Below, in pieces: positions 10,361 through 16,942 of a DNA stretch of 37,269 bases (position 1 is the stretch's first letter; each line of letters begins with the position of its first letter). Under the pieces are notes generated by a model, which saw only the letters and a list, made by a program, of their open reading frames with translations, ran no database searches and had not been told where the DNA came from. The DNA comes from Thermomicrobiales bacterium. GTDB lineage: Bacteria > Chloroflexota > Chloroflexia > Thermomicrobiales > UBA6265. A program made the translations under genes and the position numbers. The stretch lies in contig JAGQGU010000045.1 of assembly GCA_020432165.1 (NCBI GenBank), positions 1-37,269 on the forward strand, given 5' to 3'.

Positions 10361-11782
10361 ATGATTCAACTCGTTACCTTCGATTTTCACAATACGATCG
10401 CCCACTGCGATGCCTGGTTCAAGCTGGAGATTCGGCGACTACCGGCGGCAGCGTTGGCGCTGATCGATGCGGACGCACTGGCACGGATTGGCGATGACGC
10501 ACTCACCGAGGCCTATCGCACGCTCCGTATGAATGTGATCGAGAGCGGTATCGAGATCGAAGCCATTGATGGGTTGGAGCAGGTCTACGCACACTTCGAA
10601 CTGAGTTATCCACGCGAGGAGATAGAGGCGGCCGTCGAGAAGTTCATGCGAGAGGCACTGCTCGAAGCGGAGGCTGTTCCGACCGCGATCGAAGGCATCC
10701 GTCTTCTCCATGACCGTGGCATCCGCATTGGGGTGATCAGCAGTGCCATCTATCATCCTTTTCTGGAATGGACACTGGAGAAGTTCGGACTTGCCGATGC
10801 CGTCGAGTTCGTGGTTACGTCCGCGAGCGCCGGTATCTACAAGAGCAATCCTGCGCTCTATGCGCAGGTGCTGGAAAGCCTGGGCGTACCGCCCACGGCG
10901 GCGATTCATGTCGGCGATTCGGCACGCTGGGATGTCTGGAGTCCCCAACAGGCAGGTATGCGGGCGGTGCTGGTGCCGAATGGTGAACCTCTGAGCGATC
11001 TCCAACACGCTACCGAAGCCGAGCCGGATCACATCGCCGCAACGCTCTTCGATGCTGCCGAATGGATTCTGCAGCAACAGAATCCGGCGCTAATCATCGA
11101 TATCCTCACGCTCTTCCCGGGCATGTTCGAGGGAGTATTGGGAGAGAGTATCTTGAAGCGCGCCCACGCCAAAGGCCTCATCGATATCCGTGTCCACAAT
11201 ATCCGTGACTGGACGCATGACAAGCACCGCACTGCCGATGACACACCGTATGGAGGTGGAGCCGGTATGGTGATGAAAGCGCCGCCGATCGTCGAAGCGG
11301 TCGAGGATGTGCTGGGCGACGAACTGCCGTCGGCCCACGTAGCCATAATGAGCGCGGGTGGTCGCCGCTTCTCGCAAGAAATCGCGCAGGACCTCAGCGA
11401 ACACGGACGCGTGGTGTTGATCTGCGGTCACTATGAGGGGATCGATGAGCGTGTCTCGGAGATTCTCGGAGCCGACGAACTATCTATCGGCGACTACGTG
11501 CTCACAGGCGGCGAACTACCGGCAATGGTCATCGCCGATACGATCAGCCGTCTGGTGCCGGGCGTGATTACCGAAGAGAGCATTCTGGACGAGTCGCATC
11601 TCGGTGAGTATGTGGAGTATCCGCACTACACCCGCCCGCAGGAGTATCGTGGGCTGGAAGTGCCGGAGGTGTTGCTGAGCGGCCATCATGCCAGAATTGC
11701 CGAATGGCGGACTGAGCAAGCGAAATTGCGCACCGCCAGGTGGCGACCAGATTTGTTAACCAACTCCGATCCGGATAGTTAA
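10361..11782 (+). CDS. trmD: HAD-like hydrolase domain fused to tRNA (guanine-N1)-methyltransferase TrmD
   Basis: A single frame of 473 residues. Residues 1-235 are a HAD-superfamily domain: motif I DFHNT (8-12), motif II SS (127-128), lysine K161 in YKSNP, and motif IV GDSARWD (185-191). Residues 244-473 are a complete TrmD, which makes m1G37 in tRNA: DILTLFPGMF (247-256), DDTPYGGGAGMVM (293-305), GHYEGIDERV (356-365), YVLTGGELPAM (379-389), and EYPHYTRPQEYRG (419-431). There is no ATG, GTG or TTG between the domains near residues 230-250, so TrmD can only be made as the fusion. Motif I has His where active HAD phosphatases have the second Asp. AGAGGA precedes the ATG. The usual partners rpsP, rimM and rplS are absent. 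Confidence 0.93.
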   Translation: MIQLVTFDFHNTIAHCDAWFKLEIRRLPAAALALIDADALARIGDDALTEAYRTLRMNVIESGIEIEAIDGLEQVYAHFELSYPREEIEAAVEKFMREALLEAEAVPTAIEGIRLLHDRGIRIGVISSAIYHPFLEWTLEKFGLADAVEFVVTSASAGIYKSNPALYAQVLESLGVPPTAAIHVGDSARWDVWSPQQAGMRAVLVPNGEPLSDLQHATEAEPDHIAATLFDAAEWILQQQNPALIIDILTLFPGMFEGVLGESILKRAHAKGLIDIRVHNIRDWTHDKHRTADDTPYGGGAGMVMKAPPIVEAVEDVLGDELPSAHVAIMSAGGRRFSQEIAQDLSEHGRVVLICGHYEGIDERVSEILGADELSIGDYVLTGGELPAMVIADTISRLVPGVITEESILDESHLGEYVEYPHYTRPQEYRGLEVPEVLLSGHHARIAEWRTEQAKLRTARWRPDLLTNSDPDS

Positions 11783-11804
11783 CGAGAGTAGCGCAAACTG
11801 TCGC

Positions 11805-12842
11805 CTAACTCATTGGCTGCACGTGCTCTTCAATGAACTCAATTTCATCGGCGCTGAGGTTGTACTTCGCATAGAGCTGCTGGTCAATCTCCGCGATCGA
11901 CTTAGACCAGTCGACGTCAGACCTACTTGTGAAATCTTGGGTAGGAACGTGTGCCCAGACCCGTGCAAGATTGTCCTGAGTAACTTTCTTCATACCAAGC
12001 ATGGCGCGAGAAAACTTTGTTTTTATGTACTTGAGACACGCCTCAGCTTGCATCACCGTGCTAAATGAACCAACAGTTATGAAAGTACCAGTAACAGCCA
12101 TACCTGGTCCCAAAATCAGGGGTGGTGCGAGAGTTTCGCCAAATACCCCTGATCCACTTGCTTTTGGTAAGGCCACTTTGAACCGGTACAAAACCTCTGG
12201 GCCAGCAACAAAGTCTTTGCGAATCCATCTGAATGCTCGCTTTTTGTCCTCGTCAAGTCCTAGAACACACAGATAATCATGCCCGTCGTCGGGTCGATCG
12301 ACGAAGAATACTTGATGAAGCCGAGAAAACGCCCTTGAATCAATCTTGTAGTGATTACCCGCAGACATAGCGCTTGACAAATCTGGGTATTCCTCGTGCA
12401 TCGTGTGTGAATATCTGAACACGCGATCGTTCGTTATCCCTTCCTCAATCATTGAAGCGCCACGCTGGTCCGCAACTTTGGAGTCAATCGTAGCGAGTTC
12501 CGGATATTTCATGAACTTCACAATCGGTCCGATAGTTTTTGAGTCATCACGATAAGATACTGCGACCCCTCCTTTGATGTCGGTACCGGGAAACAGCTTA
12601 TCGCTGTTTGGGACATAGATTGGAACAGATAGATGCCGGTCACTAAGCATCTTGGCGTTCCATACCTTGGGAGTGTATCCAGCATCGAAGAGGAATCGAG
12701 CGGGAGTGATCAACACAGCCTTCTTCCCAACTTCGAACGCCGCGTCCATGAAAAGGTGATAAATGGGCATCTGGTTGGTCGCATTTCCTTGCGCGTCTTC
12801 CTGATATGGGGGGTTGCCAATCACCACGTCGAACTTCTTCAT
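11805..12842 (-). CDS. N6-adenine DNA methyltransferase catalytic half (NPPY protein, Eco57I-like)
   Basis: Protein of 345 residues that begins MKKFDVVIGNPPYQ, so catalytic motif IV (NPPY, 10-13) is within the first 14 residues and the AdoMet-binding motifs X and I are missing. Downstream AVLITPARFLFDAG resembles the strand after motif IV in Eco57I-type enzymes, and the rest is probably the target-recognition region. The ATG overlaps the helicase stop by 4 bp (ATGA). The missing AdoMet-binding half is visible at the C terminus of that helicase, and a second one is encoded by the first gene of the operon. I infer the enzyme assembles from separate chains. Local GC is about 47-50% in the lines I counted. 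Confidence 0.88.
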   Translation of the reverse strand: MKKFDVVIGNPPYQEDAQGNATNQMPIYHLFMDAAFEVGKKAVLITPARFLFDAGYTPKVWNAKMLSDRHLSVPIYVPNSDKLFPGTDIKGGVAVSYRDDSKTIGPIVKFMKYPELATIDSKVADQRGASMIEEGITNDRVFRYSHTMHEEYPDLSSAMSAGNHYKIDSRAFSRLHQVFFVDRPDDGHDYLCVLGLDEDKKRAFRWIRKDFVAGPEVLYRFKVALPKASGSGVFGETLAPPLILGPGMAVTGTFITVGSFSTVMQAEACLKYIKTKFSRAMLGMKKVTQDNLARVWAHVPTQDFTSRSDVDWSKSIAEIDQQLYAKYNLSADEIEFIEEHVQPMS

Positions 12843-15800
12843 GATTGAGCTCCTCCCGTCAGCATGTCGTCGATAACATGCTGGCGTTCCGCTTCGGTCA
12901 TAGCAGCCAGGTTTCCGACCCGGAAGTGGCCGGAGTTGGTTATCCAGTCCTTGCGTTCCGGCACGCCGCCAGAGACGGCCTCAATTGTGATGCGGTGCAG
13001 CAGTTCGTTGTGGCTCATCTCGAATACCTGTGATGTAAAGATATGCTTGAGCCGCGCATCCCGGTCGGGTATCGATTCAGCAAGCCCGGTATCAAGGCGG
13101 CGAACGAGTTCCATGAGGAAGAGCCCTGCGGTTGAGAAAAGATCAGCAAATGTCTTCGCTGGGTCAGAGAAAATGCCGGGATTCTCTGCTTCCAGCGTAT
13201 CCACCATCATCTTCACGACGGCTTCCGGGGTGAAGACAAGCGAGGTCTTCTGTTGCGGAATATAGGCGAAAATGTTCTCTTGCTGTGCGTCATCGAAATA
13301 GTCTGCCAACGTTTCCTTCTTGGTCAAGAACTCCTGAATCGATTGATCGAACACACTCTCGTCAAACAAGCCAGAAATGCTTGTGACCGTACCATTGGCC
13401 TCAACGACTTCCTGCCCGTCCCGCAGGAGCTTGAACTCATCGATGGTGATGCCAGTGATTTCCTCAAATACGTATGCTGGTGTGTAGCTGTCGAAGTTCG
13501 AGAGACGCACATTTCTGTCACCATAGGCCATGAGGAACATGGGAATTGTGCGCGCGAAGCCGCGAAGATGCGAACGGGCATCGTCCATTGTGGCGCTGGC
13601 CACCTTTTGCTCCTTCTTCGTCTCCTCCCGGGTGACAATATCCGTGGCGATCGCCACGGTTGTTGTGGTCACAATCGCAAGAAGGTCCTTCTGAAAGTCG
13701 ACATCAAGCTCTGCCCGTTTCGCTTCAACGGCCTCAGCCTCGGCTTCGGTTGCTGCGACCCTGATTTCATCGTCGAATCGCTTATGCGAGATATCGCGCT
13801 CTATGAGCGCGCGTTCTACCTCTCGAATCACGGCAGATTCGGTCTGTTTCTCGTCTCGCTCAACTTGTTTCGCTGTGAGGTCATAAGCCTCCTTTAGCTC
13901 TTCACGAAGCTCGCGGGATCTCTCGGTCACCAGTTTGGCAACTTCGCGCGCGGTTGTGTGATAGGGGGCACCATAATCGATCGGATCTATATCTGCGGCA
14001 CTCCACACAGGCTTGCCAAGCTCAGCGATCTTGGGATTGATGACCTTCTCAAAATCGACCTTCACATTGCTATCATCGTCAAATGTAGGCGTCTTCTCAG
14101 GTAGTTCGAACGTTTGCCCTGTCTTGATCTTGCCTTGCTTCGCCGTTGGGAGTTTCTCGAGAATCCCCTTGACTTGTTCGAGATTGCGGAAGATGCCAGA
14201 GACATTGGCAAACAGGAGATTGGAGAGAAAACCGCGTCGAACCACTTCTCGGGCTTTGAAGATTTGGGGGAACGTAAGTACCTGGGTAGCATCCAATTCC
14301 ACCATACGCCCTTCGGCGTCTTCGCCGATAACAGGGAAGAAGTTGAGAAGACGACCGACATTGCTCCGGCGAGCCTCGTGATCCCACGCTGGCGTGGGAC
14401 TCAAATTATTGGCGAAGGCATCGAAGATGGTAAGTGTTCGTTCAGGTGCGAAATCAAAGATGTATGCATTCTGCTTCTGGAATACGGAACCTGCTCTCTC
14501 AAACATGCATGGGTTTTGGGCCCTAAACGCCGCTTGCATATAGCGTGAGGGAGAAGTCATATTGGAAAGCATGATCACTGCGGTCCACTCTGGAACGGTA
14601 ACCCCGGTGGTCAACTGCCCGACGGACAATGTGATGGTCTTTCCACCAGTTTGCTCGGCTTCGGCGATCGCCTTACGAACTCTCTCTAGTGACTCACTAC
14701 TTGCATCCGGATCATCGTCATCAGAGCGCCCGTCACCCGCAGCAACGATAACTTCGTACTCGCCGAAAACTTCGTGACTCTTCAGCAGTTTTTCGAGTGC
14801 CTTCGCGGAAGCAACTCGATCCAGCAGCCAGAACGAATGTCGAATCTCGTCCCGTAGTTCTGGCGTGGAGAATGGGTATTTCTCGTTAACCGTGAGGCAA
14901 TCAAGAAATTTCAGGACGTCGGCCTCGTGCTCGAAGAAGCCATTCTGCTTCGTGCTAAAGAACTCACCGAGATCGAACGCGTAGTCTATATTGGCTTCAT
15001 CCTCGGCAATAGCAACACCGACTGTCAGTTGGTCAGAGATCATGCGCGAGACCTGGTACGTCAACATATTGAGCGTGGGGAGAGCACTGTACGGGTTCTC
15101 TGCGCTGTCATCGGCCCAGTTCTTGCGTGCCGTTTGTTCGTCCTCATACGTCCAGTTGAAAATCTGATCCCCACCAAACTTGCCGGAGGCAAGCGCCTTG
15201 AACGGTGTCCCTGAGAGATGAAGAGTCCACTTCCGCCTGATCTGGTTGAATGCGACATCTGTCTTAAACGTGTCGACACCTTCGTGCGCTTCATCGATCA
15301 CGAGTAAATCCCACTGCAGGTCGGCGATATGGCGCAGTTTGTCGTATTGGCCCCCGAAGTAGCGAGCACCTTTGAGATCCTGGAGTGAAACGAACTCGAT
15401 GATACGAGGGTCGTGATCAATTTGGGCTGCGCTGTGCGTCGTCCATTGAGAACGGGTCATTGGCGTACGCTCAGAAAGCGAAGATGACTCCGAGACGAAC
15501 GCATATGTTGTCTGATGACCGATGAACCTTATGTAGTCGTCATACCACGAATTCGCGATGGCAGGGCGGTTCGTGACGATGAGCGCCTTTTTGACCCCGA
15601 GTTTACGCATGAGGTCATACGTTGTTAGCGTCTTGCCAAAGCGCGGCTTCGCATTCCAGAGAACCTCATCGCTGCCATTGCGAAAATTGTCGATGGCGAG
15701 CTCGACAGCAGCAAGCTGCTCGGGGCGAAGCACATAATCATCTTCACCCTGCGACTGAAGGTCTCGGAAATCATGGCCGGTAAAATCATTGAAGTATTCG

Positions 15801-16129
15801 AGCGAAGTCTTAGGTAAGTCAGCAAACCGATGCCATTCAGTACGTTTTGGGCTTGTCTCACGTTGGACCCCCATTTGACGCAAGTAGGCATGAAACTCTT
15901 TGTCCGTGAAGCTGCCACCTTCAGCGGTGGTATACATCGCTCGCCGTGCCCACTCCAACTTCTTGGTAATCGACATTTGGGATGCTTGTTGATCGATCCG
16001 ATGTGTAGCACTCTGCTGTTCCGTGTAACCGATCTTCTCCCAACCCTGGTATTTGGGGATGTCTGGCGTCGTCCAAGAATAGATAAGAGGTGTGATTTCT
16101 CGATATGTTTTGATGCTCGGCCTAGCCAT
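12839..16129 (-). CDS. Large DEAD/DEAH helicase-restriction protein with C-terminal AdoMet-binding methyltransferase half
   Basis: Protein of 1096 residues. Residues 14-46 (PLIYSW...KIGYT...HRI) look like a GIY-YIG/T5orf172-type nuclease start. A superfamily 2 helicase core follows: RPEQ (135-138), Walker A PRFGKT (162-167), DEAH (279-282), SGTPF (306-310), and a VGQLTTGVTVPEW...AAFRAQNP region (503-540) for motifs V and VI. A charged, coiled-coil-like stretch spans about 755-850. Residues 965-1070 contain VFTPEAVVKMM and FADLFSTAGLF, which read as methyltransferase motifs X and I with no NPPY; NPPY opens the next gene. GAGGTG lies seven bases before the ATG, inside the upstream gene (8-bp overlap). 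Probably the ATP-driven restriction component. The nuclease assignment is the least certain part. Confidence 0.87.
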   Translation of the reverse strand: MARPSIKTYREITPLIYSWTTPDIPKYQGWEKIGYTEQQSATHRIDQQASQMSITKKLEWARRAMYTTAEGGSFTDKEFHAYLRQMGVQRETSPKRTEWHRFADLPKTSLEYFNDFTGHDFRDLQSQGEDDYVLRPEQLAAVELAIDNFRNGSDEVLWNAKPRFGKTLTTYDLMRKLGVKKALIVTNRPAIANSWYDDYIRFIGHQTTYAFVSESSSLSERTPMTRSQWTTHSAAQIDHDPRIIEFVSLQDLKGARYFGGQYDKLRHIADLQWDLLVIDEAHEGVDTFKTDVAFNQIRRKWTLHLSGTPFKALASGKFGGDQIFNWTYEDEQTARKNWADDSAENPYSALPTLNMLTYQVSRMISDQLTVGVAIAEDEANIDYAFDLGEFFSTKQNGFFEHEADVLKFLDCLTVNEKYPFSTPELRDEIRHSFWLLDRVASAKALEKLLKSHEVFGEYEVIVAAGDGRSDDDDPDASSESLERVRKAIAEAEQTGGKTITLSVGQLTTGVTVPEWTAVIMLSNMTSPSRYMQAAFRAQNPCMFERAGSVFQKQNAYIFDFAPERTLTIFDAFANNLSPTPAWDHEARRSNVGRLLNFFPVIGEDAEGRMVELDATQVLTFPQIFKAREVVRRGFLSNLLFANVSGIFRNLEQVKGILEKLPTAKQGKIKTGQTFELPEKTPTFDDDSNVKVDFEKVINPKIAELGKPVWSAADIDPIDYGAPYHTTAREVAKLVTERSRELREELKEAYDLTAKQVERDEKQTESAVIREVERALIERDISHKRFDDEIRVAATEAEAEAVEAKRAELDVDFQKDLLAIVTTTTVAIATDIVTREETKKEQKVASATMDDARSHLRGFARTIPMFLMAYGDRNVRLSNFDSYTPAYVFEEITGITIDEFKLLRDGQEVVEANGTVTSISGLFDESVFDQSIQEFLTKKETLADYFDDAQQENIFAYIPQQKTSLVFTPEAVVKMMVDTLEAENPGIFSDPAKTFADLFSTAGLFLMELVRRLDTGLAESIPDRDARLKHIFTSQVFEMSHNELLHRITIEAVSGGVPERKDWITNSGHFRVGNLAAMTEAERQHVIDDMLTGGAQS

Positions 16130-16829
16130 GAGCTTTCACCTCTTTATAGACATGATCTATGCGACAGGGTTCATATTTGGCATAGGTAGTGAAATCGAAT
16201 GCCCCTCTGTTGGCAGCGCGCAAGGAGTCTAGGGTGAACGGCTCACGTTGAACTATGCCCGGCACATTCAAAACCCGATTCCACCACGAGAACAGAATCA
16301 ACTCTCCACTTGCGTCTGTGCCAGTGAGCGTATTCCCTTGAACAATGTTTGCATTGATGAGACATACTGCTGACCGCCATAGGTTCGTTCGCCTACTACA
16401 TTTGATTCCGTTCCGTGTATGGAAATCAACGAACGACATTAGTAGCAGCTCTTGCGCAGTTTCAAAGTTGTCCTCCAGGAGTTCAACACCATAGATTGAC
16501 GCCAACGCAAACAAAGATTCGGTCGGCCAGAATTCAGGTTGATACCGCCTCTGGATTGCGGCAAGCTTCCGCTCAAGAATTGCGACAAGAAAGTTCCCGT
16601 CGCCTGCGGCAGGCTCAAAGAAGGTCTTGTCCACAAACTGAGGCCCGGTCTCCAGATCGGGGCGGACCAGGTCAAGCATTTGATTGACCAAATGGCGAGG
16701 CGTAAAGACTTCACCATAGGCCTTCACCCTGTGTCGAGACTTCACGAGTTGCTCAATCCTCCGCAAGTCTGACACCAGGTGCGCAGGTGATTCACTCTGC
16801 GGCCCTAAGGAACGAGATTGAGCTGCCAT
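16122..16829 (-). CDS. N6 DNA methylase AdoMet-binding half (no NPPY motif)
   Basis: Protein of 235 residues with methyltransferase motif X in GEVFTPRHLVNQML (39-52), motif I FFEPAAGDGNFL (70-81), an acidic strand-2 motif IYGVELLEDN (112-121) and NIVQGNTL (161-168), where family members often have Asp in place of the Asn. The chain ends at residue 235 without a catalytic NPPY, so it cannot methylate DNA alone. From memory, short proteins of this type occur beside helicases and NPPY proteins as restriction subunit M. It is the first gene of the three-gene island operon; GAGGGG sits only two bases before the ATG. It overlaps the helicase gene by 8 bp. Confidence 0.85.
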   Translation of the reverse strand: MAAQSRSLGPQSESPAHLVSDLRRIEQLVKSRHRVKAYGEVFTPRHLVNQMLDLVRPDLETGPQFVDKTFFEPAAGDGNFLVAILERKLAAIQRRYQPEFWPTESLFALASIYGVELLEDNFETAQELLLMSFVDFHTRNGIKCSRRTNLWRSAVCLINANIVQGNTLTGTDASGELILFSWWNRVLNVPGIVQREPFTLDSLRAANRGAFDFTTYAKYEPCRIDHVYKEVKAHG

Positions 16830-16856
16830 ATCCCCTCTTTGCGATCGACGAGTGCG

Positions 16857-16887
16857 ATACTACGTGATACTTACCAGTATGCGTCAA
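16857..16887 (-). promoter_or_regulatory. Candidate sigma-70 promoter of the modification/helicase operon
   Basis: On the minus strand TTGACG (16887-16882) and TAGTAT (16862-16857) are separated by 19 bases, slightly long. The -10 lies 28 bases upstream of the start codon at 16829. This fits independent transcription of the island. Confidence 0.4.
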
Positions 16888-16942
16888 ATAACGAGTTCTC
16901 GGAGGCTGGAGTCAACCAACAAGCTCCAGGCACGCCTTTTGG

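What the first reader, a model, noticed from the sequence alone, without database searches (positions are those of the whole stretch)
11805..16829. Three-gene modification/helicase island with two AdoMet-binding halves but a single NPPY catalytic half
Seen: gene 1 (16829-16122) has VFTP and EPAAGDGNF but no NPPY. Gene 2 is a 1096-residue DEAH helicase whose C terminus has another FTP plus motif I-like FSTAGLF, also without NPPY. Gene 3 begins at NPPY. All are coupled by 8-bp and 4-bp overlaps. Inference: the methyltransferase is assembled in trans, and one AdoMet lobe may be regulatory, a sensor, or an alternative partner for the same catalytic half. There is no HsdS-like gene, so specificity probably sits in the NPPY protein. 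This does not match the component lists of Type I, Type III, BREX or DISARM systems as I know them.
Basis: partly seen in the sequence, partly recalled or inferred. Interest (0 to 1): 0.78.

Follow-up and report, generated by a model that had tools for sequence, protein, structure and literature searches.

The report
DrdVI-type split restriction-modification system
These three genes are an uncommon layout of a little-studied, widespread kind of bacterial DNA-defence enzyme, in which one catalytic half of a DNA-marking enzyme comes with two partner halves, one that has kept the signature for binding the methyl donor and one that has always lost it.

Summary
In detail: three coupled genes (8-bp and 4-bp overlaps), two motif X/I lobes, one NPPY. 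Identity: a DrdVI-type split restriction-modification system. M1.DrdVI resembles gene 1, M2.DrdVI resembles gene 2's C terminus plus gene 3, and DrdVI is a fused translocase/GIY-YIG nuclease (GCAGCC m6A shown for cloned M1-2.DrdVI). So it is not outside known systems, but it is not Type I, III, BREX or DISARM.

A survey of 145 related loci shows four conserved modules: M1, m2n, catalytic half g3 (NPPY plus recognition) and nuclease-helicase. 94 of 98 loci with room on both sides hold all four; 114 of 121 complete loci hold exactly one NPPY. M1 keeps the AdoMet residues but never NPPY. m2n lost the first motif-I glycine and the motif-II acid in 132 of 132. g3 is fused to M1 in some lineages, to m2n in others, to neither here.

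Best explanation: M1+g3 writes m6A; the AdoMet-blind m2n docks the same g3 onto the nuclease-motor. The identity is firm; the lobe assignment is inferred. The window layout is a new variant, in a 5-kb island between trmD and recO.

The parts
16122..16829 (-). M1: lone AdoMet lobe (motifs X, I, II, III; no NPPY), homologue of M1.DrdVI
   Evidence: motif residues conserved in 63/63 M1a homologues
16590..16616 (-). motif I EPAAGDGNF of M1
   Evidence: EPxxGxG 63/63 in M1a
12839..16129 (-). Nuclease-translocase subunit with C-terminal pseudo-lobe (R-T-m2n)
15800..16102 (-). GIY-YIG/T5orf172-like nuclease domain (residues 10-110 of gene 2)
   Evidence: invariant Y17, K32, G34, R44, E98; T5orf172 hit in homologue L053; PMC4996451 notes GIY-YIG in a DrdVI homologue
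14210..15736 (-). SF2 helicase/translocase (AKPRFGKT, DEAH, SGTP, QAAFRAQ)
   Evidence: ResIII E=9.8e-13; conserved motifs
13271..14209 (-). Region between helicase core and m2n (coupler-like, by position only)
   Evidence: sequence position; no family hit
12842..13270 (-). m2n: degenerate AdoMet lobe (FTP, DLFSTAGLF, VFEMSHNEL)
   Evidence: homologous to M1a, hhalign E=1.6e-13; motif I first Gly and motif II acid absent in 132/132
11805..12842 (-). g3: catalytic half (NPPY) plus target-recognition part
   Evidence: Eco57I Pfam E=7.7e-17; M2.DrdVI C-terminal homologue
12804..12815 (-). motif IV NPPY
   Evidence: N-P-P at 99% of 139 sequences each, Y at 99% of 138
12168..12527 (-). variable stretch of g3, likely target-recognition region
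   Evidence: lowest column conservation, 0.35-0.47; inference
11783..16942 (.). inserted island between trmD and recO
   Evidence: 5.2 kb in the window against about 190 bp in the related genome G303; GC 50-53% against 56-61%

Best explanation
A DrdVI-type split restriction-modification system. Gene 3 (g3) recognises an asymmetric site, flips the target adenine and carries NPPY. Gene 1 (M1) supplies the AdoMet-binding lobe, so that M1+g3 is the modification enzyme (m6A on one strand). Gene 2 is an ATP-driven translocase with an N-terminal GIY-YIG nuclease; its C-terminal AdoMet-blind lobe (m2n) pairs with or docks on the same g3. The nuclease-motor can therefore read an unmodified site without methylating it, then translocate and cut. 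Shown: gene content, homology to DrdVI, complementary loss of motifs, fusion of g3 to either lobe. Inferred: which lobe methylates, lobe exchange, cleavage after translocation. (The identification alone would deserve about 0.93; the figure below is for the mechanism.)
For: Homology to M1, M2 and R.DrdVI with the same operon content; cloned M1-2.DrdVI gives m6A at GCAGCC (PMC6430315), and M1-M2.MaeIV gives single-strand GCACY (PMC10113651). AdoMet residues kept in M1 (motif I EPxxGxG 63/63 in M1a; EITCGEAP at 92-100% per position in M1b; motif II acid 63/63 and 74/74) and lost in m2n (132/132). Exactly one NPPY module in 114/121 complete loci. g3 fused to M1 in 36 ORFs and to m2n in 53 ORFs, with repeated changes on the helicase tree. 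AlphaFold2 of natural m2n-g3 (pLDDT 90, pTM 0.87) and M1a-g3 (pLDDT 84, pTM 0.79) both match gamma-class MTases such as CamA, M.BseCI and LlaGI/LlaBIII. Precedent: LlaGI flips its target adenine without AdoMet (PMC4872093).
Against: m2n is covalently linked to g3 in DrdVI itself and in many relatives with a compact linker, so m2n-g3 is also a natural unit. No published test was found that separates M1 from M2. No multimer prediction, PAE or coordinates were available, so the exchange is not modelled. M1b has GEA in place of GxG. AlphaFold2 tends to complete a fold whichever lobe is supplied.
Confidence: 0.5

Rival explanations
1. m2n+g3 is the actual methyltransferase despite its degenerate motifs, and M1 is an allosteric AdoMet sensor or stabiliser (heterodimer with one regulatory half).
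For: m2n-g3 is one chain in DrdVI and in many relatives, with a shorter motif I to NPPY distance (median 134 aa against 178 in M1-g3 fusions), and folds with the higher confidence. M1 has its own conserved C-terminal tail (W183 62/62).
Against: Loss of the motif I glycine (K or T instead) and of the motif II acid in 132/132. M1-g3 fusions exist in which m2n is on another chain.
Confidence: 0.25
2. All three lobes act together in one fixed complex: M1 binds AdoMet next to an m2n-g3 scaffold (composite or domain-swapped active site), with no exchange.
For: All four modules are retained together in 94/98 loci with room on both sides; complementary motif loss.
Against: I know of no precedent of a gamma MTase with AdoMet and NPPY in different Rossmann units; not modelled here.
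Confidence: 0.2
3. A decayed or inactive RM island: gene 1 and gene 3 are remnants of a broken methyltransferase.
For: A split gene with pieces lacking motifs is what decay can look like; the island differs in GC content from its flanks.
Against: All three frames are intact with overlapping starts; the same layout occurs in several actinobacterial genera at 69-77% helicase identity and the motifs are conserved.
Confidence: 0.04

Closest known systems
DrdVI (Deinococcus wulumuqiensis pDrdVI, M1/M2/R.DrdVI) and MaeIV split methylase family (REBASE)
   Same: M1 without NPPY, second MTase lobe plus NPPY and recognition half, GIY-YIG translocase-nuclease; single m6A per asymmetric site in the characterised members
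   Different: in DrdVI m2n and g3 are one protein (M2) and the helicase is separate; in the window m2n is fused to the helicase and g3 is free; specificity unknown
Type ISP (LlaGI, LlaBIII)
   Same: nuclease, SF2 translocase, gamma-class m6A MTase and recognition domain working as one machine; fold match of the MTase part
   Different: ISP is a single chain with an Mrr nuclease and one complete MTase; here a GIY-YIG-like nuclease, several chains, an extra M1 lobe and a degenerate second lobe
CamA / M.BseCI gamma-class m6A methyltransferases
   Same: best fold matches of the m2n-g3 and M1-g3 units
   Different: single complete MTases without a duplicated lobe, translocase or nuclease
OspHL35III-type Type IIG-like systems (PMC4752239)
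   Same: single recognition module shared by MTase, translocase and GIY-YIG nuclease
   Different: there translocase and GIY-YIG are separate proteins and the MTase is MmeI-like and in one piece

Membership tests
DrdVI-like split RM | M1 lobe without NPPY encoded next to the MTase | tested here: met
   gene 1 homologous to M1.DrdVI (L035), no NPPY
DrdVI-like split RM | second MTase lobe plus NPPY/recognition half (M2) | tested here: met
   gene 2 C-terminus plus gene 3 align with M2.DrdVI modules, though on two chains
DrdVI-like split RM | fused translocase and GIY-YIG nuclease | tested here: met
   gene 2 residues 1-660 align with DrdVI at about 35% identity; invariant GIY-YIG-type and helicase residues
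DrdVI-like split RM | m6A on one strand of an asymmetric site | not testable with these tools
   no methylome data for the window organism
Type ISP | single polypeptide with Mrr nuclease and one complete MTase | tested here: not met
   three chains, GIY-YIG-type N terminus, split MTase
Type I RM | HsdS specificity subunit | tested here: not met
   no HsdS family hit in the three proteins; island bounded by trmD and recO
Type III RM | Mod subunit plus Res subunit | tested here: not met
   motif order X-I-IV over two chains and no Mod family hit; only the helicase matches ResIII
BREX | PglZ/BrxC and complete PglX | tested here: not met
   three-gene island, no BREX model hit in the window proteins
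DISARM | DrmA/DrmB/DrmC with MTase | tested here: not met
   no such PADLOC hit in the three proteins

The most novel reading that the evidence does not exclude
A read/write switch by lobe exchange: one catalytic-recognition half is shared by an AdoMet-competent lobe (M1, writer) and an AdoMet-blind lobe carried by the nuclease-motor (m2n, reader), so that modification and restriction are decided by which lobe completes the same Rossmann fold.
Probability: 0.33. Interest if true: 0.82.

Novelty: new variant of a known kind. Interest (0 to 1): 0.58.

Why it matters
RM enzymes must choose between marking and cutting the same site. This family, found in at least 589 stretches of one public genome collection and barely described in the papers that could be searched, appears to have placed the two readings in two lobes that share one catalytic half. 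The window layout, with all three on separate chains, is a convenient natural version for testing which lobe does what by leaving genes out one at a time.

Tried and rejected
Solved-structure search by sequence for genes 2 and 3 gave nothing. NCBIfam names none of the three proteins. A search of Pasteurellaceae relatives for a natural M1-m2n-g3 fusion failed because a locus id is not accepted as centre, and the viral scan for one gave only DrdVI-type loci, mostly already held. No surveyed locus had M1 and m2n-g3 in one frame close enough to fold as one chain. First alignments for the M1-g3 fold put M1 tails into g3 and were discarded. Truncation/decay was rejected. Loci lacking M1 (L123, L134, L181) were examined for a restored m2n motif: L181 and L134 keep the K, and no m2n in the alignment has a restored motif. 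The idea that M1a and M1b are unrelated partners was rejected: they are homologous over 150 columns, E=5e-24.

Full report
What is there. The window encodes three coupled genes on the minus strand: gene 1 (16829-16122, 235 aa), gene 2 (16129-12839, 1096 aa) and gene 3 (12842-11805, 345 aa), with an 8-bp and a 4-bp (ATGA) overlap. Pfam gives ResIII for gene 2 and Eco57I for gene 3; gene 1 matches only weakly to MmeI_Mtase and N6_Mtase.

Surroundings. The genes fill an island between a HAD-TrmD gene and recO. In a genome of the same genus (G303) these two genes are about 150 bp apart (about 190 bp between aligned flanks), against 5.2 kb here. GC falls from 56-61% in the flanks to 50-53% in the island. 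The helicase has a match in 9 of 301 genomes searched in the phylum, the window's own included. The nearest relatives are in actinobacterial genomes and plasmids, with the same three-gene order.

Identity. A protein search of plasmids led to pDrdVI of Deinococcus wulumuqiensis 479, where a 212-aa M1, a 539-aa M2 and an 851-aa helicase lie in a row. The literature calls M1-2.DrdVI a Type IIG system with m6A at GCAGCC, cloned and expressed in E. [quoted passage not shown] The window is therefore a member of this kind.

Survey. ORFs of these 145 loci were searched with profiles of the modules: M1 (two types, M1a and M1b), m2n, g3, and hel (nuclease-helicase). Among 98 loci with room on both sides, 94 hold all four modules; 114 of 121 complete loci hold exactly one NPPY-bearing module. 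The linkage differs: M1a | m2n-g3 | hel in 35 (DrdVI type); M1b-g3 | hel-m2n in 26; M1b | g3 | hel-m2n in 17; M1a | hel-m2n | g3 in 7 (window type); M1b | hel-m2n-g3 in 6; M1a | g3 | hel-m2n in 5; and M1a-g3 | hel-m2n in 1. On a tree of 153 helicases the label 'g3 fused to M1' needs 22 changes (at least 16 forced by well supported branches) and 'g3 fused to m2n' 11 (at least 8), so links have been made and broken many times. Some breaks may be frameshifts in draft assemblies.

Complementary loss. In M1a, EPxxGxG is present in 63/63 and the motif II acid in 63/63; in M1b the motif I reads EITCGEAP, with E, C, G, E and P in 72/72, I in 94%, T in 92% and A in 97%, and the acid is present in 74/74. 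In m2n the first glycine is K or T and the acid is A, G or S in all 132. g3 keeps N-P-P at 99% of 139 sequences each and Y at 99% of 138. No unfused M1 and no hel-m2n chain contains [DNS]PP[YFW]. M1a and M1b are homologous over 150 columns (E=5e-24), and M1a and m2n over 67 columns (E=1.6e-13). The simplest history (inference) is duplication of one gamma MTase followed by loss of the catalytic half in one copy and of AdoMet binding in the other.

Structure. AlphaFold2 of a natural m2n-g3 stretch (L083, 527 aa, 75 rows) gives pLDDT 90.4, pTM 0.87; of a natural M1a-g3 fusion (L109, 586 aa, 80 rows) pLDDT 84.0, pTM 0.79, with a low-confidence linker 169-232 where M1a rows had been trimmed. Both match CamA best (E=2.4e-20 and 1.0e-13) and also M.BseCI, BrxX and Type ISP LlaGI/LlaBIII. 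TM-scores to CamA are about 0.6 for m2n-g3 and 0.40-0.45 for M1a-g3. So either lobe can complete the g3 half in prediction; coordinates, PAE and multimer modelling were not available, and such predictions tend to complete a fold.

How it probably works. M1 has the residues for AdoMet and g3 has those for catalysis and, by inference, the target (variable stretch); together they should modify. m2n sits on the nuclease-motor in the window and in most of the non-DrdVI forms. A lobe that cannot hold AdoMet could still let g3 flip and inspect the adenine, as LlaGI does without AdoMet in its crystal (PMC4872093). The nuclease-motor would then read the site without marking it and cut after translocation, in analogy to Type ISP. 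The lobe assignment and the exchange are inference. The main rival keeps m2n-g3 as the methylase with M1 as a sensor.

Verdict. Observation confirmed with two corrections (pseudo-lobe, GIY-YIG domain). Not categorically new: a new variant of the DrdVI kind. The general pattern (two lobes, one catalytic half, fusions both ways) was not found described in the papers that could be searched, and it makes the question of how such enzymes separate marking from cutting directly testable.

Noticed in passing
L139:9688-13838: Downstream of hel-m2n-g3: a partial g3, an inverted g3, a 33-bp 97% inverted repeat over the NPPY codons (10782-10814 / 12804-12836) and a tyrosine-recombinase-like ORF (by eye); looks like an invertible specificity cassette with its crossover at motif IV.
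   Followed up: partly
L062:1949-2818: A spare g3 on the opposite strand upstream of M1b-g3-hel-m2n, with inverted similarity at the NPPY region.
   Followed up: partly
window 10361-11782: HAD hydrolase fused to TrmD in one ORF; matched over both halves also in G303 and G313, separate matches in other relatives.
   Followed up: no
L035 M2.DrdVI and relatives (alignment A2): DrdVI-type M2 carries a conserved H..W..GKC.YCG...H insert between motif III and NPPY, zinc-finger-like.
   Followed up: no
L031:7710-8160: The Lactococcus fused enzyme has an extra N-terminal domain matching DUF4145 (below cut-off) / the Type I endonuclease model PRK11448 before the GIY-YIG part.
   Followed up: no
L084:3976-5961, L099:4079-5926: A GmrSD-like (DUF262-type, by eye) gene between M1b and g3; L069 has an extra GIY-YIG-like ORF there.
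   Followed up: no
L124: A copy of the window-type operon (74% helicase identity) lies on a contig classed as viral, 52.7 kb.
   Followed up: no
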